A stretch of 42,162 nt of DNA from Cypionkella sp. GTDB taxonomy: Bacteria > Pseudomonadota > Alphaproteobacteria > Rhodobacterales > Rhodobacteraceae. The translations under genes and the position numbers were made by a program. The notes under the pieces are model-generated. The model made no database searches, had not been told where the DNA came from, and saw only the letters and a program-made list of their open reading frames with translations. This document shows, one piece after another, positions 7,362 to 36,394 of the stretch (positions are counted from its first letter, which is position 1; each line of letters begins with the position of its first letter). Location: the NCBI RefSeq assembly GCF_030652235.1, contig NZ_JAUSBA010000068.1, forward strand, positions 1 through 42,162, written 5' to 3'.

Positions 7362-7377
7362 TGTCTCTTGTGCAACA
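7362..7377. promoter_or_regulatory. Candidate TGTC-N8-GACA operator (one mismatch), ribH2 promoter region
   Basis: TGTC-TCTTGTGC-AACA, about 99 nt upstream of ribH2. The left arm and first two spacer bases (TGTCTC) match the sites at 28798 and 32475; the right arm has A for G. One-mismatch sites occur by chance, so it is weaker than the exact sites. Confidence 0.4.
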
Positions 7378-7461
7378 GGGGGGGATGGCACAAACTGACG
7401 CCTTGTGGAACAATCAGATAGACCTCTCGTGCTCACGTCGTGCTCACGCTGACGCGGTGGG

Positions 7462-7876
7462 TTAGCCGACTGTCACGCCAAAACAGTCAAACAGGGTTTG
7501 CTCGGTGATAAAGGCCGCCTTGGCATCACAAAAGAAGCTGACGACATTCGCGACAACGGGTTGCATTTGTCGAATTCGCGTAGCCAGTTCCAGCGCCCAG
7601 GTGCGTGCCGTGGATAGCAGCGCCCCCATTGATGCGCTGTAAATGTTTTGCCCACAGTCACGTGGCTAGTAGTCATGATAATGCGCCCGCCGCCAAGTTT
7701 GCGAATGCCCGGCACAAGGGCCTTTGCCACCATCAGGGCGGTGCGGGTGTTCAGGTGCATAACCGCGTCGAAATCGTCCATGTAGATTACGCCAATCCAT
7801 CATCTGCAAGCCGCCGACTGATGCCCTGGCCGATGTTGCAAGCCCAGCCCGTCACTACAGCCCATTGGTCGCGCAT
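7462..7876 (-). pseudogene. Decayed short-chain dehydrogenase
   Basis: Three pieces of one SDR can be read in order on the minus strand. From the ATG at 7876: MRDQWAVVTGWACNIGQGIS and RRLADDGLA, the Rossmann TG-x-G-x-G start, then an in-frame TAA. Next, from about 7781: DDFDAVMHLNTRTALMVAKA then GGGRIIMTTSHVTVG, the central NAD-binding and catalytic-serine region. Finally, in another frame: SMGALLSTARTWALELA then FITEQTLFDCFGVTVG, the usual SDR C-terminus. About 50 residues of the middle and part of the C-terminal half are missing, so there is at least one deletion plus a frameshift. It sits between ribH2 and the acyl-CoA dehydrogenase. Confidence 0.75.
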
Positions 7877-7918
7877 GTCCTGTCCCTTGCGATGGGTCGT
7901 CCCCGGCCCCTGAGCCCG

Positions 7919-9079
7919 TTACTGGCTGGCCGCTTTGATCATTCCGCGTGCAATGACGAGTTGCTGGATTTGCGTAGTGCCTTCGTAGATCCGGAATAGT
8001 CGAACATCGCGGTAAAAACGCTCAACCCCGTAATCGGTAATGTAACCTGCGCCGCCGTGGATCTGCACGGCACGGTCAGCGACACGGCCGACCATTTCAG
8101 AGGCATACATCTTGCAGCACGCCGCTTCTGTCGACACGTTCTGACTGGCATCCTTGCGACGCGCGGTTTCTTCAATCATGCAGCGGGCGGCAAAAGCCTC
8201 GGTGCGGCTGTCGGCCAGCATGGCCTGAATCAACTGCTTTTCGGCGATGGGTTCGCCGAATTGCTTGCGGTCCATCGCATAGCGCAGGCTGTCGCTGATC
8301 AGGCGTTCAGCCGCCCCAGTGCAGACCGCCGAGATGTGCAATCGCCCCCGGTCCAGCACTTTCATCGCGGTCTTGAAGCCCATCCCCAGACGGGCAGGGC
8401 CGCCAATGATGGCATTTTCTGGCACACGGCAGTCTTCAAGGATCACATCGCAGGTGTGCGATCCTTTTTGCCCCATCTTGCGGTCAATCGGGCCCAGCGA
8501 CAGACCCGGTGTATTCGCCTCGACCAGAAATGCTGTGACACCTGCCGAGTTTTTCGACATGGGGTCGGTACGCGCAAAAACAGTGAACAGGCCAGCGCGC
8601 GGCGCATTGGTGATATAGCGTTTGGTGCCATTCAGGATGTAATGATCGCCATCCTTGCGGGCCGAGGTGCGCAAAGACCCAGCGTCAGACCCAGCTTCGG
8701 GTTCGGTCAGCGCGAAGGACGCGATCAACTCTCCGGTTGCCAATAAGGGCAGGTAGGCCGTTTTTTGCTCCGACGTGCCGTCAATGACGATGCCTTGCGA
8801 CCCGATGCCGTTGTTGGTGCCCACCAAAGACCGGAACGCAGGCGAGGTTTGGCCCAGTACGAACGCCGCCTGTACTTCTTCGGCCATGGTCAGGCCAATG
8901 CCGCCAAACTCTTCCGGGATCGATAGGCCAAACAGCCCCATGTCACGGATTTCCTGCACCAAAGCGGGCGGGATCGCATCATCTTCGGCCACACGGTCTT
9001 CGTTTGGGATCAAACGCTCTTTGACAAAGCGGTCAAGCATATCAAGAAACTGCACCAGCGTTTCGGCATCTAGGCTCAT
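7919..9079 (-). CDS. Acyl-CoA dehydrogenase
   Basis: A 386-residue FAD enzyme that introduces the 2,3 double bond in acyl-CoA esters, the first beta-oxidation step. Visible motifs are FGLSIPEEFGG, SFALTEPEAGSDAGSLRT (FAD/acyl-CoA binding), QIHGGAGYITDYGVERFYRD and the C-terminal RIYEGTTQIQQ, whose Glu is in the position of the catalytic base of the short-chain group. The start MSLDAETL is chosen because AAGGATGG lies 5 nt before it and relatives start the same way; in-frame ATGs at 9088 and 9097 are less likely. It is divergent from the alcohol dehydrogenase gene, and a candidate operator lies between them. Its specificity cannot be read; the island context suggests a pathway-specific acyl-CoA. 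Confidence 0.9.
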   Translation of the reverse strand: MSLDAETLVQFLDMLDRFVKERLIPNEDRVAEDDAIPPALVQEIRDMGLFGLSIPEEFGGIGLTMAEEVQAAFVLGQTSPAFRSLVGTNNGIGSQGIVIDGTSEQKTAYLPLLATGELIASFALTEPEAGSDAGSLRTSARKDGDHYILNGTKRYITNAPRAGLFTVFARTDPMSKNSAGVTAFLVEANTPGLSLGPIDRKMGQKGSHTCDVILEDCRVPENAIIGGPARLGMGFKTAMKVLDRGRLHISAVCTGAAERLISDSLRYAMDRKQFGEPIAEKQLIQAMLADSRTEAFAARCMIEETARRKDASQNVSTEAACCKMYASEMVGRVADRAVQIHGGAGYITDYGVERFYRDVRLFRIYEGTTQIQQLVIARGMIKAASQ

Positions 9080-9171
9080 GTGCGCCATCCTTAGCAAATG
9101 TTCCCTTTTGCCTTAACAGGTGCGCAGGCCTGCGGAAATTGAACGAATGCTCCACACCCTGCGCCCACCCC

Positions 9172-9187
9172 CGTCGCAGAAGAGACA
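9172..9187. promoter_or_regulatory. Candidate TGTC-N8-GACA operator (one mismatch), divergent promoter
   Basis: CGTC-GCAGAAGA-GACA, between the acyl-CoA dehydrogenase (minus) and the alcohol dehydrogenase (plus), about 90 nt from each start. The spacer core CAGAAG resembles the exact site at 32475 (TCAGAAGC). Confidence 0.4.
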
Positions 9188-9277
9188 GTTGTTCCGGGTG
9201 GTCGCCATGCCGCTAATTCCCTTAACGCAGCCCGCCACGCGCTGCGCGAAATGAACTCTAGCGAGGAGGGACCCAAA

Positions 9278-10345
9278 ATGAAGGCTTTGCGTTTTCACGC
9301 CGCCAAGGATCTGCGGATCGAGGATATTCCGCGGCCGACTGATCCGGCCAATGATGAAGTCGTGATCAAGAACCGCTTTGCGGGCATCTGCGGCACCGAC
9401 TTGCACGAATACGCATATGGCCCGATTTTCGTGCCGAAAGATGCGGCAACCGGTGCTGCAACTCCGCAAGTTCTGGGCCATGAATACGGTGGCACCGTCA
9501 CCATGGTTGGCAAGAACGTCACCCATGTAAAGGTTGGCGACAGGGTTTCGGTTCAGCCCTTTATCACGCCGCGCGGTGGCGACTATTTCACCGATCTGGG
9601 GCATTTCAACCTGTCGGACAATCTGCAGATCGCGGGTCTAAGCTGGATCGGTGGCGGTATGGCGTCGGAAAGCCTGCTCAAGGGCTTCAACGTCTACAAA
9701 GTGCCCGACAACATGACGGATGAGGACGCAGCATTGGTCGAGCCGACCGCTGTGGCGGTTTATGGCGTCGATCGGGGCGGTGTGAAGGCAGGGGATTCGG
9801 TGCTTGTCACTGGCGCTGGTCCGATTGGCTTGCTGACGCTGTTGGCCGCGCGCGCTGCCGGGGCTGTGCAGTTGTTCGTATCTGACCCCAATGCCACCCG
9901 TCTGCGCATTGCCAAGGACATCATCCCTGACGTCGTTACCATCAACCCGCGTGAGCAGAATGTCGGCGACGTGATCCGCGCTGCGACCGAGGGCAATGTC
10001 GGTTGCGACGTTGCATTGGAATGCGTCGGCAATACGCTGGCACTACAGGCCTGCATCGATGCGGTGCGCAAGCGCGGTACGGTTGTGCAGATCGGTCTGC
10101 ACGCGGGCGAAGCGCCAGTGAACTGGTTCAACGTTGTTTACAAAGACATCGATATCCGCGGGTCCTGGGCCTACACCGCGCAAATGTGGCCACGCGTGAT
10201 GCGGCTTTTGGCATCGGGCCAAATTCCAGCACGCAAGGTTGTGACCAAGACCGTGATGCTGGACACCGTGATCAAGGAAGGCTTTGACGTGCTGCTTGAT
10301 CCCGCTGGTACGCAGCTTAAGATCCTGATCGACCTTGGCGACTGA
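9278..10345 (+). CDS. Zinc-type alcohol dehydrogenase (butanediol/sorbitol dehydrogenase-like)
   Basis: A 355-residue medium-chain dehydrogenase. The catalytic-zinc ligands are present: C38 in GICGTDLHEY, H68-E69 in LGHEYGG, and E155 in LVEPTAVAVYGV. The NAD(P) site VTGAGPIGLLTLLAA is at about 178-192. The lobe that normally carries four structural-zinc cysteines (about residues 93-130: PRGGDYFTDLGHFNLSDN) has no cysteine, so the second zinc is absent. GGAGGG precedes the ATG at 9278, which is chosen over the ATG at 9251. It would oxidise a secondary alcohol or diol, or reduce the ketone. A terminator follows at 10389. Confidence 0.85.
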   Translation: MKALRFHAAKDLRIEDIPRPTDPANDEVVIKNRFAGICGTDLHEYAYGPIFVPKDAATGAATPQVLGHEYGGTVTMVGKNVTHVKVGDRVSVQPFITPRGGDYFTDLGHFNLSDNLQIAGLSWIGGGMASESLLKGFNVYKVPDNMTDEDAALVEPTAVAVYGVDRGGVKAGDSVLVTGAGPIGLLTLLAARAAGAVQLFVSDPNATRLRIAKDIIPDVVTINPREQNVGDVIRAATEGNVGCDVALECVGNTLALQACIDAVRKRGTVVQIGLHAGEAPVNWFNVVYKDIDIRGSWAYTAQMWPRVMRLLASGQIPARKVVTKTVMLDTVIKEGFDVLLDPAGTQLKILIDLGD

Positions 10346-10388
10346 GAGACTGGCCGAAGCTGCCTTAGGCCCTGTTAGCAGTCTGGAA

Positions 10389-10421
10389 AGCCAAGGCATC
10401 CCTGCGGTGTCTTGGCTCTTT
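10389..10421 (+). terminator. Terminator after the alcohol dehydrogenase
   Basis: AGCCAAG (10389-10395) pairs with CTTGGCT (10411-10417) across a 15-nt loop and is followed by CTTT. It is about 45 nt after the stop codon. Confidence 0.55.
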
Positions 10422-10440
10422 CATTTCTGGAGTTTTGCAT

Positions 10441-10472
10441 AAAAAAATACCCGCAGCCGAACCGACTGCGGG
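10441..10472 (-). terminator. Strong terminator after the thiolase
   Basis: Read on the minus strand: CCCGCAG (complement of 10466-10472), a 9-nt loop, CTGCGGG, then TATTTTTTT. It lies about 25 nt after the thiolase stop and is convergent with the terminator at 10389. Confidence 0.8.
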
Positions 10473-10497
10473 CAGGCACAGGCCTGATGGGGAGCCT

Positions 10498-11703
10498 TCA
10501 GGCCCGTTCAAGAAGCAATGCAACACCTTGGCCGACGCCGACGCACATCGACACCACGGCGCGGCGGGCAGTGCCCAAAGACAGCTGTAGCGCCGCACTG
10601 CCGGTGATACGCGCGCCCGACATACCCAACGGATGACCCAGCGCGATGGCCCCGCCATTGGGGTTCACGCGGGGATCATCGGCGGCGATGTTCAGACCCT
10701 GAAGGCACGCAAGAACCTGCGCGGCAAAGGCCTCGTTCAATTCAAAAAGGTCGATGTCCGCGGTGGTAAGCCCTGCCTGCGCCAGCAATTTTTCAACGGC
10801 GGGCACTGGTCCATAGCCCATGATGCGCGGTGCAACCCCCGCCGAGGCACCCCCTACCACCCGCGCAAGCGGGCGCAGACCGTGGCGGGCAACAGCCGCT
10901 TCGGACGCAAGGATCAGCGCGGCAGACCCGTCATTCACACCCGAGGCATTGCCTGCCGTGACAGACCCATCCGCCCGCGCAATGGGGCGGAGCCGGGTCA
11001 GATCGGCCAAGGTGGTTTCTGGGCGCGGGTGTTCGTCTGTAATGATCAGCACCTCTTTGCCTTTACCCGCAGGCACAGACAAGCCCATGATTTCCCGCGC
11101 AAATCGTCCTGAAGCCATGGCGGCCTCGGCCTTGTGCTGCGATCCAAGGGCAAAGATGTCTTGCGTCTCGCGCGTGATATTCATCTCATCCGCTAGGTTC
11201 TGGGCTGTTTCCGGCATCGAATCTGTACCATGCATCGCCTGCATGCGCGGATTGACGAAACGCCAGCCGATGGTGGTATCCTCCATCGCCACAGTGCGCG
11301 CAAAGGCGCTTTCCGATTTCAGTAAGACAAAGGGCGCGCGGCTCATGCTTTCGACGCCGCCTGCGATGGCGAGTTCCATCTCGCCCGACTTGATGGCGCG
11401 CAGGGCGGAAATCACCGCTTCCATCCCCGACGCACAAAGTCGGTTGACCGTAACACCCGGAACGCTGACCGGCAGGCCCGCCAACAGCGCAGCCATTCGC
11501 GCCACGTTGCGGTTATCCTCGCCCGCCTGATTGGCGCAACCCATCCAGACTTCCTCAATGGCCGCAGGGTCCATACTGGAATTGCGCCGTAACAACTCTG
11601 CCAATGGCAGGGCAGCCAGATCGTCGGGGCGCAGTTTTGAAAGACTGCCGCCATGGCGACCGATAGGGGTGCGGATGAAGTCGCAAAGGAAAACGTGGGT
11701 CAT
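10498..11703 (-). CDS. Acetyl-CoA acyltransferase (thiolase, PcaF/PaaJ-like)
   Basis: A 401-residue thiolase that cleaves 3-oxoacyl-CoA into acetyl-CoA and a shortened acyl-CoA. The nucleophile C90 lies in VNRLCASGM, the active-site histidine H357 in ALGHPLGMSGAR, and the second cysteine C387 in SMCVGVGQG. The length and the stretches GCANQAGEDNRNVARMA and MEDTTIGWRFVNP match 3-oxoadipyl-CoA thiolases (PcaF/PaaJ), so a dicarboxylic or ring-derived substrate is possible. It overlaps the upstream FadB-like gene by 4 nt (ATGA), so the two are coupled and probably act on the same intermediate. Confidence 0.9.
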   Translation of the reverse strand: MTHVFLCDFIRTPIGRHGGSLSKLRPDDLAALPLAELLRRNSSMDPAAIEEVWMGCANQAGEDNRNVARMAALLAGLPVSVPGVTVNRLCASGMEAVISALRAIKSGEMELAIAGGVESMSRAPFVLLKSESAFARTVAMEDTTIGWRFVNPRMQAMHGTDSMPETAQNLADEMNITRETQDIFALGSQHKAEAAMASGRFAREIMGLSVPAGKGKEVLIITDEHPRPETTLADLTRLRPIARADGSVTAGNASGVNDGSAALILASEAAVARHGLRPLARVVGGASAGVAPRIMGYGPVPAVEKLLAQAGLTTADIDLFELNEAFAAQVLACLQGLNIAADDPRVNPNGGAIALGHPLGMSGARITGSAALQLSLGTARRAVVSMCVGVGQGVALLLERA

Positions 11704-13775: not shown

Positions 13776-13887
13776 GTCTGTTCCTCGACGTGACGGGCGA
13801 AAGGCGGCCGCGTGTCATGCAATCGGCCAGCGAGAGGGCAGGTTTCTGCCTGCTTCTCTGTGCGACTGCAGGGGCGTCAATCGCAAC

Positions 13888-13903
13888 TGTCAATTCTGAG
13901 ACA
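13888..13903. promoter_or_regulatory. Candidate operator TGTC-N8-GACA (exact), divergent promoter
   Basis: TGTC-AATTCTGA-GACA, with arms extending to CTGTC/GACAG. It lies in the 255-nt gap between the FadB-like gene (start 13775, minus) and the flavin reductase (start 14031, plus). Confidence 0.6.
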
Positions 13904-14030
13904 GAGAGGTGCGCGCCAACCAACGCATCTTGGTCAGTATCCTTCCTCTAAGTAATTGAAAACTATGGGAGCAGAAGAGCTGCGTCTAGAGCCTTGAATT
14001 TAGAAGATTTGAACGAGGAGGATCGTCCAC

Positions 14031-14546
14031 ATGTCGGCACAAGAATTGGGCCATCGACCAATCGGCGAGGCGTTCCGTGCCAGCATGCGGTTGGTCGCAT
14101 CGTCGGTGTCGTTGGTCACGGCCCGCGATAGCGCGGGTGTCTGGCACGGTATGGCGGTGACAAGTGCAGGGTCATTGTCGATGGACCCGCCGTCGATGAT
14201 GGTCGCTGTCAACCAGACCGCTTCGATTTATCCGGTGATCCTTGAGACGGGGCATTTTACCCTGAACCTGATGGACGAGGCCCATGCGAATTTGCTGGAG
14301 CCGTTCGCGCGCAGTGACATGCGGGACCGGCGCTTTGTCGAGGATGACTGGACCCAAGTTGGGCCGGGTGGCCCGGTGTTGAAGGGCGCTTTGTGCAGCC
14401 ATGTCTGCCGCGTTGCCCAAACCCATGATTTTGGAACTCACACCGTGTTTTTCGGCGCGGTCGATGCGGTGTTCCTGCCCGACGACATCCCGCCTGCGCC
14501 TGCCCCCATTCTTTGGCTGAACGGCAAACGGGGCTCGGTTGCCTGA
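14031..14546 (+). CDS. Flavin reductase (HpaC-like)
   Basis: A 171-residue protein of the flavin reductase-like, FMN-binding split-barrel family. The N-terminal FRASMRLVASSVSLVTARD, then HGMAVTSAGSLSMDPPSMMV (flavin-binding strand), FTLNLMDEAH and the final PILWLNGKRGSV are typical. Such enzymes use NAD(P)H to make free reduced FMN for a two-component monooxygenase. GAGGAGG lies before the ATG. It is 82 nt before the LLM monooxygenase pseudogene. The lost partner suggests it now serves another monooxygenase, perhaps the intact LLM enzyme at 31069. Confidence 0.88.
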   Translation: MSAQELGHRPIGEAFRASMRLVASSVSLVTARDSAGVWHGMAVTSAGSLSMDPPSMMVAVNQTASIYPVILETGHFTLNLMDEAHANLLEPFARSDMRDRRFVEDDWTQVGPGGPVLKGALCSHVCRVAQTHDFGTHTVFFGAVDAVFLPDDIPPAPAPILWLNGKRGSVA

Positions 14547-14628
14547 GCCGTACTATCACTGACTTCGGAACCTTCCAACGCCAGAAATCACCGCTCCGGG
14601 AGGAGCAAATTAAACTGGGAGGACTACA

Positions 14629-15717
14629 ATGGAAATCGGTCTGTTCCATATGCCGCTGCACCCGACACACCGGCCACTGGTCGATGTGCTTGCAGAAAAT
14701 GCCGAAAAGATCATCTACGCCGATCAGTTGGGTTTTTCGGAAACCTGGATCGGTGAGCATTATTCGGCCACGACCGAACCGATAACTGCGCCAATGATGT
14801 TCATGGCGTCCTTGATAAATCAGACCAAGAACATCCGTTTTGGTACGGGAGTGCTTTGCCTGCCAAACCACCACCCGGCACAGATTGCAGGGCAAGCAGC
14901 CTTGTTTGACCACATGTCCGGAGGTCGCTTTAATATGGGGATCGGGCCGGGTGGCCTTGCGTCCGACATGGAACTGTTTGACGTGCTGGATGGCACTGTC
15001 CGCGCCGAGAAATTTGCGGAATAAATCAGCATTATCAAGCAGATCTGGGCGCAGGATCCCCCTTATGACATCAAAGGCAAGCATTGGCACATCAAGCTGA
15101 CGGATAATATCATACCGGAACTTGGCGTCGGTTACATGCAAAAGCCGTTCCAAAAGCCCACTCCGCCGATCTCGCTTTCGTCGATGTCGCCTGATGGCAA
15201 CTCGGTCGCTCATGCGATCAAGATGGGTTGGAAGCCGATCACCGCAAACTTTGCGCCGGAAAGCACTGTCATCAACCACTGGCACAAGTATGTCGAAGGC
15301 TGCGACGCGATGGGGATCAAGCCTACCGGCAAAGAATGGTCGGTTGCCCGTAACATCCTGATCGCTGACAGCGATGCGCAGGCCGAAGATTGGTTGCTGG
15401 ATCCGGCTGGTTCGGATTTCTACTACTTCGACTACCTGTGGAAAGTGCTGAAAGTGGCGAATTATACCGCCGTGGCCAAGCCTGACATCACGATGGCCGA
15501 CGAAGACGTCACCGTCGAGTCGATCGTCAAGGCCTCGGTCATCTATGGCTCGCGCAAGACCGTTATCGACAAGATCATGGCACTGCGCGAGCGTTCGGGC
15601 CCGTGGAATATGCTGCTTTAGACCGCCATGGACGGTTCGGGCAAAAGCCGCGAGCGCGAGCGTCTGACGATGCGCCGTCTGGCCGAAGACGTTCTGCCGG
15701 TCATCAACGCAGGCTGA
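14629..15717 (+). pseudogene. LLM-class flavin-dependent monooxygenase, two in-frame stops
   Basis: A limonene-monooxygenase-like luciferase-family protein of 362 codons, similar along its whole length to the intact copy at 31069. It starts MEIGLFHMPLHPTHRPLVDV with GGGAGG upstream, and has SLINQTKNIRFGTGV, DHMSGGRFNMGIGPGG, DPPYDIKGKHWHIKL and QAEDWLLDP. One frame is kept from start to stop (TGA at 15715) but is broken by TAA at 15022-15024 (after RAEKFAE) and TAG at 15619-15621 (after NMLL, before TAMDGSG). The intact paralog shows these positions are inside the enzyme. No other damage is seen, so inactivation is recent, or the stops are sequence errors. Confidence 0.85.
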
Positions 15718-15721
15718 CACA

Positions 15722-16650
15722 CCTAGGCGCGGGAGGGCAGGTTGATGTCTTTATCGAGAATTTCAAGCTGTCGCCTTGGAAGAAATGGGGGGCCGATGAC
15801 CTTTCCGAACTGACCCGCCGCTTTCCCGCTCTGGTGCATTGCCGGGTGTCCGGCTTTGGGGACACCGGCGTTTATGGCGGGATGCCGGGGTATGATGCTG
15901 CACTTCAGGCCATGTCGGGGCTGAAGGCGGTCAACGGCCCGCCCGATATATACGCAATGCCGAATCGGCATCCCGATCGTGGACACCTGCACGGGCATGG
16001 ATGGCTGTATGGGCATCCTGCTGGCGCTGCTGGAACGCAACCGGTCGGGCAAGGGGCAGCAGGTAGAGGTAACACTACACGACACCGCCATCGCGATGCT
16101 GCATCCGCATGCGTCAAACGTGTTGAACGGTGGCCGTGCGATCCACACTTGCAACGGCCACCCCAACATCGTGCCCTATGATCGTTTCCCCACCGGCACC
16201 GTGCCGCTGTTTCTGGCCGTCGGCAATGACCGCCAGTTCCGCACTCTTTGTACAGAGCTTGGCCTTGCCGATCTGGGAGCCGATGCGCGGTTTCGCAGCA
16301 ATGGCTACCGGGTGGTGAACCGCGAAGCACCGCGTGCAGCGCTGTAGCCGCCCTTGGCTTTGCAGGACGGAATGCAGCTTTTCCAGCGGCTTATGTCGGT
16401 TGGCGTGTCCTGTGCCCCAGTCTTGACGGTGGAAGAGGCGCATGCGCTGGACCATACCACAACCCTCGAGATGGTGGCAGAGTTTGAGGGCTATCGCGGC
16501 CCCGGCATTGCCATCAAACTCGACCGCACGCCGGGTTCGGTGCGTTTGCCCCCGCCCGGCATTGGGGCGCATAGCCGCGAAATTCTGGGGCGCTTTGGCA
16601 TGGATGACCAAAAGATTGAGGCTTTTTTCCAGTCTGCAATCGTCAAATAG
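15722..16650 (+). pseudogene. CaiB/BaiF-type CoA-transferase, truncated and broken
   Basis: Remnant of a class III CoA-transferase. The first about 75 codons are missing; the sequence begins GQVDVFIENFKLSPWKKWG directly after the LLM stop. RVSGFGDTGVYGGMPGYDAA contains the YD of the catalytic aspartate. A frameshift near 15945-15965 moves to the frame RIGIPIVDTCTGMDGCMGIL and RSGKGQQVEVTLHDTAIAML. That frame has a TAG at 16345-16347 and then continues LQDGMQLFQRLMSVGVSCAP, up to the natural TAG at 16648. A relative with an intact gene lies at 28954. The pair LLM plus CoA-transferase is thus present twice in the window, once dead and once alive. Confidence 0.8.
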
Positions 16651-16669
16651 ACAACCAATAGGCGATTGC

Positions 16670-16689
16670 CTCATTTGAGACTAAATGAG
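16670..16689. promoter_or_regulatory. Inverted repeat upstream of the second flavin reductase
   Basis: CTCATTT-GAGACT-AAATGAG, a perfect 7-bp dyad followed by ACAAAA. On the other strand it begins TGTCTCATTT, sharing TGTCTCA with the operators at 28798 and 32475 but lacking the GACA right arm. It could be an operator or a weak hairpin after the pseudogene. Confidence 0.35.
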
Positions 16690-16786
16690 ACAAAACGCGG
16701 TCCAAGATTAAATATAGCCCTCGCATGCATAAATCAATAGGGTCGGTTCTGGTCATGTCTGGCCCAGCTCATCTTGAAAGATGCTT

Positions 16787-17329: not shown

Positions 17330-17349
17330 GCCTTGCTGCTTATAAGTCC

Positions 17350-17364
17350 GACAAATCAATTGTC
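17350..17364. promoter_or_regulatory. Palindrome before the regulator gene
   Basis: GACAA-ATCAA-TTGTC, a perfect 5-bp dyad 14 nt before the regulator's ATG. It has the half-sites of the TGTC-N8-GACA motif but turned outward, so it could be an autoregulatory site. There is little support beyond symmetry. Confidence 0.3.
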
Positions 17365-17378
17365 TTGGGAGGGACACG

Positions 17379-19238
17379 ATGTGGGAAACAGAGGCGATTG
17401 AGGCGCGCGGGTTTGCGGACCCGCTGTCCAGTGAGATCAAGAATATCCTACGCTCGCGCGGGGCATCCGAGGCGCGCATGCCGGACGTGGTCGAACAGTC
17501 GTGGAAGCGCTGCCTGACAGATTACAATCTGTTGCCAGATTCGGTGCCCCGCGCGGCGGTGATGACCCATTCCGAAGTTCGGATGCTTATGGAACAGCGC
17601 GAAGAATTCATGCGCATCGCGGAGCCTGAAGTTGAGGGGCTTTTCCGGCAATTGGTGGACAGTGAATATCTGGTGTCGCTGGCATCGCCACAGGGCGCGA
17701 TGGTGCTGTTTCGCTGCGACTATCAGTATCTTGGCGACCTTGCAGGGTCTGGGGTGATCCCCGGTTCGATCTGGTCTGAGGATCAGCAAGGCACGAACGG
17801 CGTGGGAACCTGTTTGCGCGTCGGCAAACCTGTGATCATCGCGGGCAGCGAACACTACGGATCGGCGATCCAACGTCTGACCTGTTTGACCGCGCCTGTT
17901 CTTGGCCGCGACGGGGTGATTGAAAGCGTGATCAACGTCACTACCGCCCGTCATGCGGATGCGCGCATGAACAAGATGGTGCAGAACATCGTCGAACGTT
18001 CGGCGCGCCGGATCGAGAACAGCTATTTTGGCCGCATGAACCGCCGCAACCTGATGCTGCGCATCCTTGAAAGCGGCGAAGTCGCTGACATCGCCGCAGA
18101 GGGGCGTTTGTCGCTGGATGAGAACGGTCGGGTGATTGACGGTTCCTCCTTTGCCGCGCGCATTTTGGGACAACAGGTTGGCAGTCTTGCGGGGCAATTG
18201 GCAGAAGACATCTTCGAGATGGACCATTCATTGTCCAATATCCGGCCCGATAGTCCGATCACCCTGAACTATCGCGGGCGCACCTTGCAGGCGGTTCTCA
18301 GCCTGCCGGAAACACGGACGCGCGTTCAAACCAGCCTGATCACGTCGCGCCCCCCAGAACCTGGTTTGCGCTCTGTTGATCTGGCTGAAGAAACTCTGCG
18401 CATCAACCCGATCCTGTCCCAAGCGTTGGACCGGGCGCGGCGGCTTTTGTCGGCGGGCCTGCCCCTTGCCATCACCGGGGAATCTGGGACAGGCAAGACT
18501 GCCTTTGCCAAAACCGTGGCGCGGTGTTGTTTTGGCGAAGACAGCGAGATTGTTTTCATCGACTGCGCATCGCTGCAACATCAGGGCGATCTTGGCACGT
18601 TGTTGCAACGGCGACTTTCGGCGCAGAGTTTGTGCCTGTTGGTGGACCGGATCGACGAAATGGATGCGGTGCGGCAGACCGCCTTGTTGGCATTGCTGGA
18701 AAATGATCGTCAGACCGGGGCCAATGGCATTGGCGTGATCGTGATCTCGACCCATGATCTTGACTATCTGGCGCGCGAAAACCGGATGCGACCGGACCTT
18801 GTGCACCGCTTGAAGGGGGGGGCGATCGGTCTTGCGCCCTTGCGCTGTGTGCCGGATCTTGAAGCCACAATCCTTGATCTTTTCCACATAGAACGCGAAG
18901 CGCTTGGCAAGCCGACGCTAGAGATGGACAGCGATTCGCGGATGGTACTGATGCATTACCACTGGCCCGGCAACCTTCGGGAACTCCGTAACAGTCTGCG
19001 CCACGCGGTTGCCTTGGCCGATGGCAATCAGATTGGACTAGAGCATTTGCCCGACAACATTGTCGAGGAACTGGCCAGCAAAGATTTGACTGCACGCTCG
19101 CAATCCCAAGCGTCCAAGATCGAGGCGGCGTTGCGCTATAACGGTGGCAACGTGTCTTTGACCGCGCGCTATCTGGGGGTTTCGCGGGCCACGCTTTATC
19201 GCAAAATACAAATCCAGAAGGCCCGCGGCGAGGTTTAG
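17379..19238 (+). CDS. AcoR-like regulator: GAF, AAA+ and Fis HTH, lacking GAFTGA
   Basis: A 619-residue protein built like AcoR-type sigma-54 activators. The N-terminal region has VVEQSWKRC (about 37-45), typical of this group. A GAF-like sensor domain (about 75-215) contains DQQGTNGVGT. The AAA+ domain (about 335-560) has Walker A GESGTGKT (367-374), a degenerate Walker B LCLLVDRIDEMD, and WPGNLRELRNSLRHAV. A Fis-type HTH (about 578-612) ends GGNVSLTARYLGVSRATLYRK. The GAFTGA loop that contacts sigma-54 should lie between FIDCASL (393-399) and Walker B, but the segment HQGDLGTLLQRRL has no trace of it. It is therefore unlikely to act through sigma-54. Within the island it is the only regulator, and so the best candidate for the TGTC-N8-GACA sites. 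Confidence 0.9.
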   Translation: MWETEAIEARGFADPLSSEIKNILRSRGASEARMPDVVEQSWKRCLTDYNLLPDSVPRAAVMTHSEVRMLMEQREEFMRIAEPEVEGLFRQLVDSEYLVSLASPQGAMVLFRCDYQYLGDLAGSGVIPGSIWSEDQQGTNGVGTCLRVGKPVIIAGSEHYGSAIQRLTCLTAPVLGRDGVIESVINVTTARHADARMNKMVQNIVERSARRIENSYFGRMNRRNLMLRILESGEVADIAAEGRLSLDENGRVIDGSSFAARILGQQVGSLAGQLAEDIFEMDHSLSNIRPDSPITLNYRGRTLQAVLSLPETRTRVQTSLITSRPPEPGLRSVDLAEETLRINPILSQALDRARRLLSAGLPLAITGESGTGKTAFAKTVARCCFGEDSEIVFIDCASLQHQGDLGTLLQRRLSAQSLCLLVDRIDEMDAVRQTALLALLENDRQTGANGIGVIVISTHDLDYLARENRMRPDLVHRLKGGAIGLAPLRCVPDLEATILDLFHIEREALGKPTLEMDSDSRMVLMHYHWPGNLRELRNSLRHAVALADGNQIGLEHLPDNIVEELASKDLTARSQSQASKIEAALRYNGGNVSLTARYLGVSRATLYRKIQIQKARGEV

Positions 19239-20065: not shown

Positions 20066-20173
20066 TTCATCCCTCCGCTGAAATCTGATTACCCCGAAGG
20101 GATATGCCCCAGCGGACCATTTCATGACGTATCGGACAATTGGCTCAATCGCGGCAGGCCGGGCGGGCCTGAC

Positions 20174-20189
20174 TGTCACACAAAGGACA
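20174..20189. promoter_or_regulatory. Candidate operator TGTC-N8-GACA (exact), divergent SDR promoter
   Basis: TGTC-ACACAAAG-GACA, in the gap between the two divergent SDR genes, 109 nt before the one on the minus strand. A further GGACAATTG lies 36 nt to the left (about 20138) and repeats the right half of this site (GGACAATTG), so two half-site copies are present. Confidence 0.55.
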
Positions 20190-20241
20190 ATTGCGGGGCA
20201 GGGGGTTGGTTTGCAGGATACGCCAAAGTGTGGAGACCAAA

Positions 20242-27358: not shown

Positions 27359-27434
27359 CTGCGACGTCCGCCTTATCGAATGCTGAAAAGGTTAAGAAGA
27401 ATGGCTCTCTCCGATCTGGATAGAGCCGAGGAAA

Positions 27435-27464: not shown

Positions 27465-27470
27465 ACTGCC

Positions 27471-28544: not shown

Positions 28545-28953
28545 TTCAGTTCCTCCCTGATTGATTGTCATTCCGCCGTGCCTTGCGCCTTGTGATCTGC
28601 AAAACGCATGAGAGTTTGTGTCGCCGAGGCTGTGTATTGGCGGGCTTTGCAGCCCGATTTCTTGGCTAGGTTTAACTGTTGGCTGTTGCGCTTGGCCACT
28701 CCCGCCACCGCAGCTTTCCGGCTCTCCCACGATGATGCTGCGGGATTGGATCATCTTTGCCCACTGGCCCATCAGCGGCGGGGCTGTGGTTTGGCCTTGT
28801 CTCAGACGCGACACTTCTTGATCCTCAATGTGGGGTAAGCCCCTGTAATAAATGAATTTGCACCTGTGAATGCCGCAGGCCCGCGCATGGCAAGCGCGCC
28901 CTCTGCTTATGGGCAGAAAGCGTGTCGGATCGGGTGGGGGTAAATGGTTTTCG
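28545..28953. other. 409-nt control region before the first importer operon
   Basis: It separates the end of the CoA-transferase gene from the binding-protein gene. It holds the exact dyad at 28798 and no convincing ORF. The position fits the promoter of the minus-strand importer operon. No clear -35/-10 pair could be assigned by eye. Confidence 0.5.
28798..28813. promoter_or_regulatory. Candidate operator TGTC-N8-GACA (exact), first importer operon
   Basis: TGTC-TCAGACGC-GACA, 254 nt upstream of the binding-protein start. It is identical to the site at 32475 at 15 of 16 positions, including the spacer, so the two sites are likely to be bound by the same protein. Confidence 0.6.
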
Positions 28954-31000: not shown

Positions 31001-31022
31001 GCCCGGCCCTTTCCCGCAATAA

Positions 31023-31060
31023 CAAAAAAAATGCGTCGGCAACCCATGGGCTGCCGACGC
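31023..31060 (-). terminator. Strong terminator after the LLM monooxygenase
   Basis: On the minus strand, a GC-rich stem (complement of GCGTCGGCA and TGCCGACGC, about 31033-31060) is followed by eight T. It lies 9 nt after the LLM stop and would limit transcription into the dehydratase and CoA-transferase genes. Confidence 0.85.
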
Positions 31061-31068
31061 CATAGGGG

Positions 31069-32151: not shown

Positions 32152-32834
32152 ATTATTTTCTCTCCATGCTGTTGTCGCCAGAAGATATTACTGACGACCG
32201 GTTATTTCGGACGTTTGGGGCATCGCATTGAATTGAATTGCCAATCAGTTAGGCGAAGGGATGTGTTTTGACCGATTGATGCCGCGTATTTCTTTGCACC
32301 AATCTGGCCAGCAAAATTGGCCTTGACTCCCGCTGAATTCTGGCTAGCGACTTATGTCGCAACATTTGATCCCAAGGATTTGCAACTCCTCCGGTTTGCA
32401 GATCCTGGGCTAGCGTCCGCTAATATCGAGTTCTTGGCTACCGTACCAAGCGGCGCGGCCTGTACCGTGGGTTTTGTCTCAGAAGCGACAGTTTTGGGAT
32501 CCGCGTGGCCGGGGATTAAGATCGTTGCGTCCCGGAATGGCCGCTTTGTCGTCTGGGTGCCCAATTGCCAGAATTTGCCCAAAAACATGTGTCACAGGTA
32601 TGGGAATGATGTGTTGAATTCAGGAAGTGGCGCTGAAAGTTCCCAATTAATATACTGATAAATCAATATTTTACGCGATGTGACACACAGTGCCACACCT
32701 GCCGTCGCACATGCGCCAATTGTCGAGCCGCCCTTGTTCGCCTCATTCTTTGGTCAGGCAGGAGCGCAGATTCCTGCTGAGTAAGGTTCGCGGCGCGACG
32801 ATTTTTGATCCGGCGTCGGAACGGGAGGGAAACT
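32152..32834. other. 683-nt divergent control region
   Basis: It lies between the LLM gene (minus) and the second importer operon (plus). An exact TGTC-N8-GACA dyad sits at its centre (32475). A 113-codon frame from 32317 has no family resemblance, no ribosome site, and contains the dyad, so it is not called. The right part is AT-richer (AATTAATATACTGATAAATC near 32644-32663), which fits a promoter. Confidence 0.5.
32475..32490. promoter_or_regulatory. Candidate operator TGTC-N8-GACA (exact), LLM / second importer
   Basis: TGTC-TCAGAAGC-GACA, 324 nt upstream of the LLM gene and 345 nt upstream of the second importer's ATPase gene. It matches the site at 28798 at 15 of 16 positions. Confidence 0.6.
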
Positions 32835-34325
32835 ATGCTGACTGTCTCGAATGTTTCAAAAAGCTTCCCGGGCGTAAAAGCGCTGTCAGCAGTACAGCTT
32901 GACGTGAAGGCAGGCGAAATTCATGCGCTTGTCGGTGAAAATGGTGCGGGCAAGTCCACTCTGACCCGGATTATAGCGGGCGTGCATCAACCCGATGAGG
33001 GCAACATAGAATTTGATGGCGAGATCGTGCATTGGTCGTCGCCCGCTGCGGCAAAAAACGCGGGCATTCATGTTATTTATCAGGAATTCGTCTTATTTCC
33101 GAATCTAACGGTTGCTGAGAATATTTTTCTGGGTCACGAACGCCGTGGTTTCATGAACGGCATTGACCATAAACAAACCCGGCAAGATGCGAATGATCTG
33201 CTTGACCGCCTTGGTGTTAAAATTAACACCGATGCACTGGTATCAGAGTTGAGCGTTGCCGATCAGCAGATGGTCGAGATCGCCAAGGCGATGGTTCACA
33301 AGGTCAAACTGCTGATCCTGGACGAACCGACTGCAGTGATCGCGGGCCATGAAGTTGAGATGTTGTTCAGCCGCCTGCGCGCGCTGCGTGATGATGGGGT
33401 CGCGATCATCTATATCTCGCACCGTTTGGAAGAAATCTTTGAACTTTGTGACCGGGTGACGGTGTTCAAGGACGGGCAGTTTGTCGTGACCGAACCTGTG
33501 TCAGGCATGACCAATGACCGGCTTGTGGCCCATATGGTTGGCCGCGATATGAGCGAATTGTTCCCGCCAAAGGCGCGGGTTGGTGAAGACCGCGCGGTTG
33601 TGTTGTCGGCGACAGAGGTTTCGGTCAAGGGACGGGTCCACAAGGCTAGCATTGATCTGCGAGCGGGCGAAATCACCGCACTGTCAGGCATGGTTGGGGC
33701 GGGGCGCACCGAACTTGCCTTGGCGCTGTTTGGTGGAATCCCGATGTCGTCGGGTGAGGTCAACATTGGCGGTGAGGTGCTGCGCAAGATGACCCCAGCG
33801 CTGGCGATTGAAAAGGGCATCGGCCTTTTGACCGAAGATCGCAAGGGCCAAGGTTTGGCCATGCACATGGACGTGGCGACCAATATCACAGCCTCTGATC
33901 TGGGTGCAGTCAGTCAATCGGGCTGGGTCGATCAGCGCAAGGAACGCGACATTGCCGCGTCGGAAATCGAGAATTACCGCATTGCTTGCCGGGGTCCGCA
34001 GGGCGCTGTGCTGACCATGTCGGGCGGCAATCAGCAAAAGGTGCTGGTCGCGCGTTGGGCCCGCACGTCGAAGAAAGTCATCATCATGGACGAACCCACG
34101 CGGGGCGTCGATGTGGGGGCCAAGGCGGAAATATACCGAATCATGCGCGGCTTGGCCGACAAGGGTTTGGCGGTGCTGATGATCAGCTCCGAAATGCCCG
34201 AGGTCATTGGTTTGGCCGACTGTGTCTACGTCATGCGCGAAGGCGTGATCACTGGTCGCTTGGGCGCAGGTGAGATCGACGATCAGCGGATCATCCAGCT
34301 TGCCACCCAAAAACGCGCCTCCTGA
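32835..34325 (+). CDS. CUT2-type ABC importer ATPase (RbsA-like), second system
   Basis: A 496-residue double ABC ATPase. The first cassette has GENGAGKST, LSVADQQMVEIAKAM and LLILDEPTAVI. The second has GMVGAGRTE (no lysine), MSGGNQQKVLVARWA and VIIMDEPTRGVDVG. The start MLTVSNVSKSFPG is chosen because GGAGGG lies 7 nt upstream. It leads an operon ATPase-permease-permease-binding protein, a different order from the first importer, so the two systems were not made by simple duplication of the block. Confidence 0.92.
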   Translation: MLTVSNVSKSFPGVKALSAVQLDVKAGEIHALVGENGAGKSTLTRIIAGVHQPDEGNIEFDGEIVHWSSPAAAKNAGIHVIYQEFVLFPNLTVAENIFLGHERRGFMNGIDHKQTRQDANDLLDRLGVKINTDALVSELSVADQQMVEIAKAMVHKVKLLILDEPTAVIAGHEVEMLFSRLRALRDDGVAIIYISHRLEEIFELCDRVTVFKDGQFVVTEPVSGMTNDRLVAHMVGRDMSELFPPKARVGEDRAVVLSATEVSVKGRVHKASIDLRAGEITALSGMVGAGRTELALALFGGIPMSSGEVNIGGEVLRKMTPALAIEKGIGLLTEDRKGQGLAMHMDVATNITASDLGAVSQSGWVDQRKERDIAASEIENYRIACRGPQGAVLTMSGGNQQKVLVARWARTSKKVIIMDEPTRGVDVGAKAEIYRIMRGLADKGLAVLMISSEMPEVIGLADCVYVMREGVITGRLGAGEIDDQRIIQLATQKRAS

Positions 34326-34335
34326 GGGACCGAAC

Positions 34336-35295
34336 ATGAATTCTGTCGCATCTACTTTCACATATCTCACCAAGCGCCGTGGCGGCCTGTTGACCGTCAT
34401 CGGGTTGATTTTTGTCCTGGTCGTCTTTGGCATGATCGTCTCAGACAAGTTCGGAACGGCTTCAAACGCGGTTAACATTCTGGAGCAATCGACGGCACTC
34501 GCACTGGTCAGCCTTGGCCAGACGCTTGTGATTATCACGCGTGGGATTGATCTGTCGGTCGGGTCGATGGTCAGTCTGGCGTCTGTGCTTTTGTCGGGCA
34601 TTACCGATGGTGATCCCACGATGATGTGGGTTGCGTTGATCGCGATCATGGCGGCCGGAGTTCTGGTGGGCCTGATCAATGCGGGGGCCTCGATCTATCT
34701 GGGGGTGCATCCGTTGATCGTGACCTTGGGGACGGGTGCTGTGCTGCAGGGGGTGACTTTGCTTTACACGCAAACTCCGATTGGCAAGATGCCCAAGGGA
34801 TTTGACGAGTTGGCATATGGTCGCATTCTGGGCCTGCCTATTGGGGCCGTTTTCACCATCGCGGCCTTTGTGCTGACCGCGATCTTTCTGCGCAAGGCAC
34901 CGCTGGGCCGCTATATCTATGCCACCGGCGATGACGCCTTGGGCGCGCAGCTGATGGGCCTGCCGCGCAGACGGGTGCTGTTCGTTGCCTATGGCTTTTG
35001 CGGCCTGATGGCTTCGGTTGCAGCAATCTTTCTGGTCGCTCGTTTGGGGGCAGGGCAGCCCTATACCGGGCAAAACTTTACCCTGACTTCGATCACCCCA
35101 GTGGTGGTTGGCGGCACCCTACTGAGTGGAGGCCGGGGCGGAGTGATCGGCACGCTGATGGGCGTATATCTGGTGTCTTTGCTGAATAACCTTCTGAATT
35201 TCATGGATATTTCCAGCCATTACCAACTGATCGTGCAGGGCCTGATCGTGATCATTGCCGTGTCTGTCTATGTCGAAAACAAGAAGAGGGTGTGA
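34336..35295 (+). CDS. CUT2-type ABC importer permease 1, second system
   Basis: A 319-residue permease with GQTLVIITRGIDLSVGSMVS, LGVHPLIVTLGTGAVLQGVT and VVVGGTLLSGGRGGVIGTLM typical of RbsC-like proteins. GAGGGA lies before the ATG, 10 nt after the ATPase stop. Its TGA overlaps the next permease's ATG. Confidence 0.9.
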   Translation: MNSVASTFTYLTKRRGGLLTVIGLIFVLVVFGMIVSDKFGTASNAVNILEQSTALALVSLGQTLVIITRGIDLSVGSMVSLASVLLSGITDGDPTMMWVALIAIMAAGVLVGLINAGASIYLGVHPLIVTLGTGAVLQGVTLLYTQTPIGKMPKGFDELAYGRILGLPIGAVFTIAAFVLTAIFLRKAPLGRYIYATGDDALGAQLMGLPRRRVLFVAYGFCGLMASVAAIFLVARLGAGQPYTGQNFTLTSITPVVVGGTLLSGGRGGVIGTLMGVYLVSLLNNLLNFMDISSHYQLIVQGLIVIIAVSVYVENKKRV

Positions 35296-36260
35296 TGACA
35301 CAATTGGCCCAACCCCCCAAGCAGGCCCCGCAAATCCTTTCGATGCAGGCCGTTCGCAACTATGGAATTCACCTTGTGCTGCTGGCGTTGATCGCGGTCA
35401 CCGGGATCCTTTCCCCGGCCTTTTTGGCGGGAAACAATATCTCAAACATGCTGTTGCAGGCGGCACCTTTGGGGATCGTGGTGATCGGTCAGGTGCTGGT
35501 TATTCTGGTCCGGGGGCTGGATTTGTCGGTGGCCTCGGTGATGGCCACGGCGGCGGTGGTGGCGACAAGCTTTAGCGGCCAAGACAGCGACGCACTTCCG
35601 GTGTTTCTGGTTGCCATGGCGATTGGCGTTCTGACCGGGTTGGTCAATGGCCTGTTGATCACCAAGCGCAGCGTATCGCCATTTCTTGCAACGCTGGCGA
35701 CCATGACGCTGCTGCAAGGCCTACGCTTTGCCTATACCCAAGGTGCGCCATCCGGCAACGTGCCGCCGATCTACCGCGTGCTGGGATCGCAGACGTTTTA
35801 CGGCGTGCCCTACAACCTGATGATCCTGATCGTTCTGGCGGTGGTGTTTTCGGCGCTGCTGCACAAATCGACTTATGGGCGGCGCGTCTACCTTACGGGC
35901 GGCAACCCGGTGATGGCGCGTTTGGTGGGCATCAATGCCGACCGAATCACCATCGCCAGCTATGTCATATCTGGTGGCCTCGCGGCGCTGGCCGGGCTGA
36001 TCTACTCGGGCTTTGTGGGCATCGTCGACAACTGGGTCGGGCGCGGGTTCGAGCTGGATTCCATCGTGGCGGCGGTGATGGGCGGCGTCGCCTTGTCGGG
36101 GGGGCGTGGGTCCATCATTGGAGGCTTGTTGGGCGCGGCCATTCTGGTCGTGGTGTTCAACGCGGTCCTGATGATCGGCATGCCTATCGAGTTTCAGATC
36201 ATCATCAAGGGCGTCGTCATCATCGCCGCTGCAGCCCTTTACGTGCGCAAGGCAGCCTGA
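35295..36260 (+). CDS. CUT2-type ABC importer permease 2, second system
   Basis: A 321-residue permease starting MTQLAQPPKQAPQ, coupled through TGATG to the first permease; a GTG at 35292 is an alternative start. It has IGQVLVILVRGLDLSVASVM, VSPFLATLATMTLLQGLRFA, and MGGVALSGGRGSIIGGLLGA. It ends at the first copy of a 16-nt tandem repeat. Confidence 0.9.
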   Translation: MTQLAQPPKQAPQILSMQAVRNYGIHLVLLALIAVTGILSPAFLAGNNISNMLLQAAPLGIVVIGQVLVILVRGLDLSVASVMATAAVVATSFSGQDSDALPVFLVAMAIGVLTGLVNGLLITKRSVSPFLATLATMTLLQGLRFAYTQGAPSGNVPPIYRVLGSQTFYGVPYNLMILIVLAVVFSALLHKSTYGRRVYLTGGNPVMARLVGINADRITIASYVISGGLAALAGLIYSGFVGIVDNWVGRGFELDSIVAAVMGGVALSGGRGSIIGGLLGAAILVVVFNAVLMIGMPIEFQIIIKGVVIIAAAALYVRKAA

Positions 36261-36355
36261 TGCGAAAGGCGCCTGATGCGAAAGGCGGCGGCCCGCCAGA
36301 AACCTTACGAGAGACGGGGACTCTCGTGACCGACTGAGGCGCCGTAAAGCGCCCC
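36255..36355 (+). repeat. 16-nt tandem repeat and hairpins after the permease stop
   Basis: GCCTGATGCGAAAGGC occurs twice in direct tandem (36255-36270, 36271-36286); the first copy contains the permease stop codon. Then a hairpin ACGAGAG-7 nt-CTCTCGT (36307-36327) and a GGCGC/GCGCC hairpin (about 36337-36353) follow. This is the gap before the binding-protein gene, where mRNA-stabilising structures are common. Confidence 0.6.
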
Positions 36356-36378
36356 AAGAGAGGGAAACCCCACGCGGA

Positions 36379-36394
36379 TATCCGCAAAGCGACA
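36379..36394. promoter_or_regulatory. Candidate TGTC-N8-GACA operator (one mismatch) before second binding protein
   Basis: TATC-CGCAAAGC-GACA, 76 nt upstream of the binding-protein ATG. The right half AAGCGACA matches the exact site at 32475. It overlaps a perfect 12-bp palindrome GCGGATATCCGC (36374-36385). It may allow separate transcription of the binding protein. Confidence 0.35.

What the first reader, a model, noticed from the sequence alone, without database searches (positions are those of the whole stretch)
7362..36394. A shared TGTC-N8-GACA dyad marks promoter regions across the whole island
Four exact copies (13888, 20174, 28798, 32475) and three one-mismatch copies (7362, 9172, 36379) all fall in intergenic promoter regions: ribH2, acyl-CoA/alcohol dehydrogenase, FadB/flavin reductase, the divergent SDR pair, the first importer, LLM/second importer, and the second binding protein. 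With equal base use, about 0.6 exact copies are expected in 42 kb. The sites at 28798 and 32475 agree at 15 of 16 bases, spacer included. This predicts one regulon joining FMN synthesis, flavin monooxygenation, beta-oxidation and uptake. The near-matches are weaker, and coding regions were not scanned exhaustively.
Basis: partly seen in the sequence, partly recalled or inferred. Interest (0 to 1): 0.82.

Follow-up and report, generated by a model that had tools for sequence, protein, structure and literature searches.

The report
Shared switch for a flavin-oxygenase island
A repeated 16-letter DNA palindrome sits at fixed distances from most predicted promoters of a plasmid-borne set of breakdown genes, so one unusual regulator probably switches them on together using the cell's ordinary RNA polymerase.

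Summary
The window has five exact TGTC-N8-GACA sites (0.51 expected). Related islands in Stagnihabitans, Paracoccus, Rhizobium/Agrobacterium and Phaeobacter keep dyads in orthologous intergenic regions. A matrix built without the window ranks 32475, 28798, 13888, 9172, 7362, 20174 and a missed site, 16667, as the top seven, all intergenic.

Aligned on the dyad, flanks show sigma70-type promoters at fixed spacings: the -35 starts 1 bp after the dyad (ribH, ADH, FadB, SDR2) or 34 bp after it (flvR1, SDR1, SBP_A, LLM2). In the second class a degenerate dyad lies 33 bp downstream, centre to centre, beside the -35. Column shuffles do not reproduce this (0 of 2000). A profile search of the S. tardus genome found the element on another contig, upstream of ribH.

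Likely regulator: the 619-aa protein at 17379, an enhancer-binding-protein relative lacking GAFTGA and the Walker-B glutamate, hence sigma54-independent. The islands were found through this protein, so its co-occurrence is not independent evidence. No binding experiment exists.

The parts
7362..7377 (-). Operator for ribH-ribE-ribBA (TGTTGCACAAGAGACA on the - strand); -35 7355-7360 (TATACC), 17-bp spacer, -10 7332-7337 (TTAACT)
   Evidence: orthologous site in Rhizobium, and in S. tardus on another contig; no second site at 17 nt
9172..9187 (+). Operator between acyl-CoA dehydrogenase (-) and ADH (+); ADH -35 9189-9194 (TTGTTC), -10 9212-9217 (GCTAAT)
   Evidence: same spacing in five islands
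9139..9154 (-). Degenerate second site, 33 bp centre to centre from 9172, facing acyl-CoA dehydrogenase; its -35 perhaps 9133-9138 (TTTCCG), -10 9110-9115 (TAAGGC)
   Evidence: ACAD promoter offset 33 ranks 2 of 110, best is 99
13888..13903 (+). Operator between FadB-thiolase (-) and flavin reductase 1 (+); FadB -35 13881-13886 (TTGCGA), -10 not resolved
   Evidence: 16 of 16 identical in Rhizobium, both Agrobacterium and both Phaeobacter islands
13921..13936 (+). Degenerate second site facing flavin reductase 1; -35 13938-13943 (TATCCT), -10 13961-13966 (AACTAT)
16667..16682 (+). Operator before flavin reductase 2 and the regulator gene (autoregulation), TGCCTCATTTGAGACT; second site 16699-16714; -35 perhaps 16715-16720 (TAGCCC), -10 16738-16743 (TAGGGT)
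   Evidence: flvR2 group offset 32 ranks 3, best is 4
17361..17376 (+). Exact dyad overlapping the Shine-Dalgarno of the regulator gene; probably not an operator
   Evidence: right half not conserved, no promoter at the expected offsets
17379..19238 (+). Candidate regulator, 619 aa: GAF sensor, AAA+ domain without GAFTGA and with Walker-B D-R, Fis-type HTH_8
20174..20189 (+). Operator between SDR1 (-) and SDR2-riboflavin kinase (+); SDR2 -35 20191-20196 (TTGCGG), -10 20214-20219 (CAGGAT)
20141..20156 (-). Degenerate second site facing SDR1; -35 20134-20139 (TTGTCC), -10 20111-20116 (TCCGCT)
28798..28813 (-). Operator for the first importer operon (binding protein, permease, ATPase, permease, SSADH); second site 28765-28780, -35 28758-28763 (TGGGCA), -10 28735-28740 (CAGCAT)
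32475..32490 (-). Operator for LLM monooxygenase-MaoC-CoA transferase; second site 32442-32457, -35 32435-32440 (TAGCCA), -10 32412-32417 (GACGCT); on the + strand also an untrained R1 profile hit facing importer 2
36379..36394 (+).
   Evidence: not in the top 30

Best explanation
The dyads are operators of one island-wide regulon. The palindrome is about TGTCnCAnnnGnGACA. A dimer or higher oligomer of the regulator encoded at 17379 binds a tandem pair of such sites, one strong and one degenerate, 33 bp apart centre to centre (three helical turns). The site next to each promoter ends 1 bp before the -35 of a sigma70-type promoter, centred at about -44.5; the other lies at about -77.5. In the divergent pairs ACAD/ADH, FadB/flvR1 and SDR1/SDR2 the same two sites serve both promoters back to back. 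The regulator lacks the loop that engages sigma54 and the Walker-B glutamate, so it most likely works as a class-II-type activator that recruits the housekeeping polymerase when its GAF domain binds a pathway compound, and it also controls its own gene. Shown by computation: site conservation, fixed geometry, absence of GAFTGA. Inferred: binding by this protein, activation rather than repression, position relative to the start point, the inducer, ATP not being hydrolysed.
For: Enrichment and intergenic position. Conservation of the dyads in related islands in two orders. A generic sigma70 matrix over 110 offsets picks offset 1 in 5 and offset 34 in 4 of 12 gene groups; 0 of 2000 column shuffles reach 9 (largest 7). 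The 17-bp spacer is best of 13-21 in 7 of 8 groups examined. Of 18 further matrix hits above 10 bits, the two strongest, S. tardus 14185 and Rhizobium 19286, have 1 and 32 as top offset. A second degenerate dyad is best of 100 offsets at 17 nt in 5 of 5 groups of the longer class; at most 3 of 5 agreed in 2000 shuffles. Profile R1 over the own 4.8-Mb genome (150 of 1367 first-look candidates scored): the five best hits all lie in this island, one of them (32475) untrained; the next has E 0.3. In S. tardus 7 of 7 R1 hits lie on the island contig or, untrained (E 0.0027), on another contig upstream of the ribH orthologue. The regulator is the only regulator gene shared by the annotated plasmid islands; 9 of 9 copies lack GAFTGA. 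An LLM relative in a genome without a listed relative of the regulator (G171) has no matrix hit above 7.2 in the 4 kb held.
Against: No binding or expression data. The islands were found by searching with this regulator, so its presence in them is partly circular. I saw the offsets by eye before testing them. The divergent pairs share DNA, so groups are not independent; two groups hold one sequence and ribH two. Misses: ACAD best offset 99 (33 ranks second); flvR2 best 4 (32 ranks third); Phaeobacter riboflavin kinase has no promoter at the expected offsets; the FadB -10 is unresolved; 16 of 18 further matrix hits, 13.1 bits or less, lack offset 1, 32 or 34 as best. By score alone 16667 (12.9) is not beyond chance (0.8 positions of 12 or more expected per shuffled window, largest shuffled score 19.4); it rests on conservation. 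Second sites are weak (mean score negative in 3 of 5 groups), and ribH has none. The matrix held one sequence (Rhizobium 19318) that proved to be the flvR2 second site. P. denitrificans ribH has no dyad upstream; none was found at G273 ribH. TGTC-N8-GACA is also the published CooA consensus. 17361 keeps TGTCTTGGGAGGG in 4 of 5 other copies, more than a Shine-Dalgarno alone needs.
Confidence: 0.75

Rival explanations
1. The dyads are bound by a CRP/FNR-family protein such as a CooA relative encoded elsewhere, and the 17379 protein regulates something else.
For: The CooA consensus is printed as TGTC-N8-GACA (passages of PMC7306483). CRP-family proteins also activate from class II and class I positions (recalled).
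Against: No CRP-family match among the 30 window proteins scanned with Pfam; the rest of the genome was not scanned. The only regulator shared by the annotated plasmid islands is the 17379 family. The conserved interior C6, A7, G11 and the tandem 33-bp arrangement are not part of the CooA consensus as printed.
Confidence: 0.1
2. The regulator binds these dyads as a repressor that blocks promoter access and is released by the inducer.
For: GAFTGA-less relatives such as TyrR can repress (recalled). A site next to the -35 can hinder polymerase.
Against: The called sites end before the -35 and do not cover the -10. Spacing to the -35 is exact at two positions 33 bp apart, as expected for contact rather than blocking. 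The -35 and -10 boxes are poor, as in activated promoters (general knowledge).
Confidence: 0.15
3. Classical sigma54 enhancers: the 17379 protein is an ordinary enhancer-binding protein and the dyads are upstream activating sequences for -24/-12 promoters, as the record annotations suggest.
For: Domain order and HTH_8; database annotation.
Against: No GAFTGA in 9 of 9 copies and Walker-B D-R in place of D-E. No -24/-12 offset is best in more than 2 of 12 groups, and there the mean scores are negative.
Confidence: 0.03
4. Chance or non-regulatory palindromes kept only because the islands are recently related.
For: The bare pattern occurs 60 times in the genome.
Against: Dyads are far better conserved than the flank stretches sampled, and one lies on another contig before the orthologous ribH. 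The three best scores among the 45 outside copies scored have no promoter or second site at the expected offsets, and at least two appear to lie inside genes.
Confidence: 0.02

Closest known systems
Sigma70-acting enhancer-binding-protein relatives: E. coli DhaR and TyrR, R. capsulatus HupR and NtrC, V. cholerae VpsR
   Same: EBP architecture with a damaged or missing GAFTGA loop; reported sigma70-dependent or to act at sigma70 promoters (passages of PMC3162934 and PMC10274813). DhaR is the best NCBIfam match (E 1.8e-43).
   Different: The DhaR score of 148.8 is far below its cut-off of 551, so it is not filed as DhaR. Here the site abuts the -35 with a second site 33 bp away, shared by divergent promoters; R. 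capsulatus NtrC acts from farther upstream (recalled). The Walker-B glutamate is replaced by arginine.
CooA, CRP-family CO sensor
   Same: Core palindrome TGTC-N8-GACA.
   Different: Different protein family; no CooA or CO dehydrogenase gene among the window proteins scanned; extra conserved interior positions.
NtrC-type tandem enhancer sites
   Same: Paired dyads about three helical turns apart (NtrC glnA sites, recalled).
   Different: There the promoter is sigma54 and the sites lie more than 100 bp upstream (recalled); here they touch a sigma70-type promoter.
Type II Baeyer-Villiger (diketocamphane) monooxygenase pathways
   Same: LLM2's best solved relative is 3,6-diketocamphane 1,6-monooxygenase (4uwm, E 3.8e-24); separate flavin reductases.
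   Different: Substrate unknown; the island carries its own FMN synthesis genes and sugar-type importers.

Membership tests
Sigma54-dependent enhancer-binding protein | GAFTGA loop in the AAA+ domain | tested here: not met
   No GAFTGA-like hexamer in 9 of 9 copies; in the alignment to ZraR about 15 residues of that region are missing and the rest does not match
Sigma54-dependent enhancer-binding protein | Walker-B D-E for ATP hydrolysis | tested here: not met
   D423-R424 invariant in the 8 copies aligned
Sigma54-dependent enhancer-binding protein | -24/-12 promoters downstream of the sites | tested here: not met
   No offset best in more than 2 of 12 groups, mean scores there negative
Sigma70-acting GAFTGA-less EBP relative (TyrR/DhaR/HupR kind) | EBP domains with GAFTGA lost | tested here: met
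Sigma70-acting GAFTGA-less EBP relative (TyrR/DhaR/HupR kind) | Sigma70-type promoters near the operator | tested here: met
   9 of 12 groups at offset 1 or 34, 0 of 2000 shuffles reach 9; sequence evidence only
Sigma70-acting GAFTGA-less EBP relative (TyrR/DhaR/HupR kind) | Transcription by the sigma70 holoenzyme shown in vitro | not testable with these tools
   needs experiment
DhaR (NF008485) | Score above the curated cut-off of 551 | tested here: not met
   148.8 bits
CooA/CRP-family regulon | TGTC-N8-GACA core | tested here: met
CooA/CRP-family regulon | CRP-family regulator gene in the island | tested here: not met
   none among the 30 window proteins scanned with Pfam; the rest of the genome was not scanned

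The most novel reading that the evidence does not exclude
A sigma54-type AAA+ activator lineage has lost both the sigma54 loop and the catalytic Walker-B glutamate and become a classical class-II-like sigma70 activator. It acts from a compact back-to-back element (-35, 1 bp, dyad, 17 bp, degenerate dyad, 1 bp, -35) that fires two divergent promoters from one pair of sites, and the whole regulon including cofactor supply travels on plasmids between orders.
Probability: 0.5. Interest if true: 0.75.

Novelty: new variant of a known kind. Interest (0 to 1): 0.62.

Why it matters
How enhancer-binding-protein relatives that lost sigma54 contact drive ordinary promoters is described as unclear for Caulobacter NtrC (passage). 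Here sequence alone gives operator, spacing, promoter and second site at about ten promoters in several genomes, so contact near -44.5 can be tested directly. It also defines the gene set, including FMN supply, of an unassigned flavin-monooxygenase pathway, which helps to find its substrate. Record labels such as 'sigma 54-interacting' on these proteins are probably misleading.

Tried and rejected
Sigma54 -24/-12 promoters: scanned in the window and across groups; offset 17 was best in two groups, with negative scores, and none in more. Rfam at gathering threshold: 0 matches in the window. Site 36379: rejected. Site 17361: probably a Shine-Dalgarno. The three best scores among the 45 of 55 outside exact copies scored: no promoter or second site at the expected offsets. 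Structure prediction: mean pLDDT 53 with four sequences, too poor to use; no fold search made. More islands: regulator searches of 394 family, 385 class and 390 order genomes gave, besides the window, one more copy with E below 1e-120 (G273, 43% identical), so there are few independent relatives. Literature: ten searches were answered; none listed a paper on this regulon, but most subscription papers are not held. DhaR and R. capsulatus NtrC originals are not held and are known here only through citing passages.

Limits: coding/intergenic counts use a curated ORF list for the window and record annotation for Rhizobium and Phaeobacter. Groups used one Rhizobium/Agrobacterium and one Phaeobacter island because the others are near-identical. 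Genome-wide profile searches scored 150 of 1367 to 2335 first-look candidates a genome. In one search the last two query proteins were merged by a naming slip (shown as a 2221-aa SBP_B); positions used are unaffected. The G273 ribH check read the wrong position; one search scored the whole locus, whose best hit was 9.1, and by the locus length only about 180 upstream bases are held (inferred).
Full report
Observation. TGTC-N8-GACA occurs exactly five times in the window (13888, 17361, 20174, 28798, 32475), against 0.51 expected and none of 100 shuffles reaching five. With up to one mismatch there are 26 against 15.5, sd 3.4. On my annotation the five exact copies are intergenic; of 21 one-mismatch copies 7 are intergenic and 14 coding. 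The chosen starts of SDR1 and the first binding protein agree with annotated relatives; longer GTG-started ORFs would run into two of the sites.

Related islands. Around them lie many of the same genes: acyl-CoA dehydrogenase, ADH, thiolase, FadB, flavin reductases, LLM monooxygenases, CoA transferases, SDRs, SSADH, riboflavin kinase, sugar-type importers and, in some, ribH or ribA; the G273 contig is short and shows few. The protein is rare: 9 of 394 family genomes, the window's included, have a relative below E 1e-60, and only the window and G273 are below 1e-120; class and order samples added none.

Conservation. Dyads recur in the orthologous intergenic regions. TGTCAATTCTGAGACA between FadB (SSADH in Phaeobacter) and flavin reductase is identical in the window, Rhizobium, both Agrobacterium and both Phaeobacter islands. 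The 28798 sequence is found letter for letter in S. tardus before the same importer and in P. denitrificans before LLM2. Dyad identity between islands is 0.73-0.94 against 0.22-0.50 at two flank stretches, six groups. A matrix from 25 sites of other islands ranks 32475, 28798, 13888, 9172, 7362, 20174 and 16667 as the top seven window positions; 36379 is not in the top 30. In 40 shuffled windows 0.3 positions of 13 or more and 0.8 of 12 or more are expected, so the seventh (12.9) rests on conservation, not score. With leave-one-island-out matrices, intergenic/coding hits in window, Rhizobium and Phaeobacter are 5/0, 6/0 and 5/0 at 14 bits, 7/0, 6/1 and 6/0 at 12, and 10/3, 9/3 and 7/3 at 10.

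Promoters. Aligning flanks on the dyad showed -35-like blocks at constant distance. I then scored every offset 0-109 with a generic sigma70 matrix and a 17-bp spacer. Best offset is 1 for ribH, ADH, FadB, SDR2 and G273 SSADH, and 34 for flvR1, SDR1, SBP_A and LLM2: 9 of 12 groups, against at most 7 in 2000 column shuffles. ACAD (33, rank 2), flvR2 (32, rank 3) and Phaeobacter ribK (none) are the misses. Of 18 further matrix hits above 10 bits, the two strongest, S. tardus 14185 and Rhizobium 19286, have 1 and 32 as best offsets; the other 16, at most 13.1 bits, do not fit. The -10 score peaks at a 17-bp spacer in 7 of 8 groups; FadB is unresolved. With usual numbering the adjacent dyad is centred near -44.5, the distant one near -77.5 (inference). 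A sigma54 matrix has no best offset common to more than two groups.

Second site. Scanning the dyad matrix over 100 positions downstream of the dyad in the five longer-spaced groups puts the best position at 17 nt, that is 33 bp centre to centre, in 5 of 5; at most 3 of 5 agreed in 2000 shuffles. flvR2 has it at 16, though one flvR2 second site (Rhizobium 19318) was among the 25 matrix sequences. Seen from the other side, ADH, FadB, SDR2 and G273 SSADH have it 17 nt upstream (the same DNA for the divergent pairs). These sites are degenerate, and ribH lacks one. Hence a common element: -35, 1 bp, dyad, 17 bp, dyad, 1 bp, -35 in divergent regions.

Genome-wide tests. Profile R1 (dyad to -10, 17 sequences) over the own genome gives five hits with E up to 0.011, all in this island. 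Four were in the training set; 32475 on the + strand, facing importer 2, was not. The next is at 0.3; 150 of 1367 first-look candidates were scored. In S. tardus, where ribH is not on the island contig, R1 found an untrained site on contig C44 (E 0.0027) about 125 bp upstream of the only ribH match, with offset 1 ranking first; its other six hits are on the island contig. In P. denitrificans and G273 the hits outside the island have E above 0.5. P. denitrificans ribH has no such site. An LLM relative in G171, which has no listed regulator relative, has no hit above 7.2 in 4 kb.

Regulator. Pfam gives GAF, a weak Sigma54_activat match and HTH_8. GAFTGA is missing in 9 of 9 copies, Walker B reads D-R, and Walker A is kept. 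The same loss is reported for TyrR, DhaR and HupR, described as sigma70-dependent (passages of PMC3162934), and for Caulobacter and Rhodobacterales NtrC (passages of PMC10274813). So an activator of the housekeeping polymerase is the best reading. DhaR is the closest named family but the curated cut-off is not met.

What it controls. Seven dyads account for ribH-ribE-ribBA, ACAD, ADH, FadB-thiolase, flvR1 (and the broken LLM1 copy), flvR2-regulator, SDR1, SDR2-ribK, importer 1-SSADH and LLM2-MaoC-CoA transferase, with importer 2 possibly on the 32475 site; operons are inferred from gene order. LLM2's closest solved relative is 3,6-diketocamphane 1,6-monooxygenase, of a type II Baeyer-Villiger enzyme group supplied with FMNH2 by separate reductases (passages of PMC8706424). 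A cyclic ketone opened to a lactone and then beta-oxidised is a plausible pathway (inference).

Limits. Nothing was tested at the bench. The islands were found through the regulator, so its co-occurrence is partly circular. A CRP-family binder is not excluded, since the CooA consensus is the same core (passages of PMC7306483).

Noticed in passing
window 14629-16647: A second LLM monooxygenase gene (with an internal TAA and TAG) and CoA-transferase remnants in two frames; full-length copies are annotated in the Rhizobium and Phaeobacter islands. Described only.
   Followed up: partly
genome G000, 17 of the 45 outside TGTC-N8-GACA copies scored: A separate palindrome, TGTCCACGCGTGGACA and close variants (8 exact among the 45), is scattered through the genome and looks like the site of another regulator.
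   Followed up: no
window 32152-32430, upstream of LLM2: Between promoter and LLM2 start there is a partly conserved leader, with GGAGGA followed by a TGC-containing block in three of four islands aligned; it could hold a small ORF or RNA element. No Rfam match in the window.
   Followed up: no
window 17361-17376: TGTCTTGGGAGGG before the regulator start is kept in 4 of 5 other copies, more than a Shine-Dalgarno alone requires.
   Followed up: partly
window 38697-41462 (-): A 921-aa protein with RTX calcium-binding repeats and a Hint domain lies just outside the island.
   Followed up: no
L046 8490-10346 and L047 6642-8471: S. tardus carries two copies of the regulator, 79% and 72% identical to the window's, each with an upstream dyad.
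   Followed up: partly
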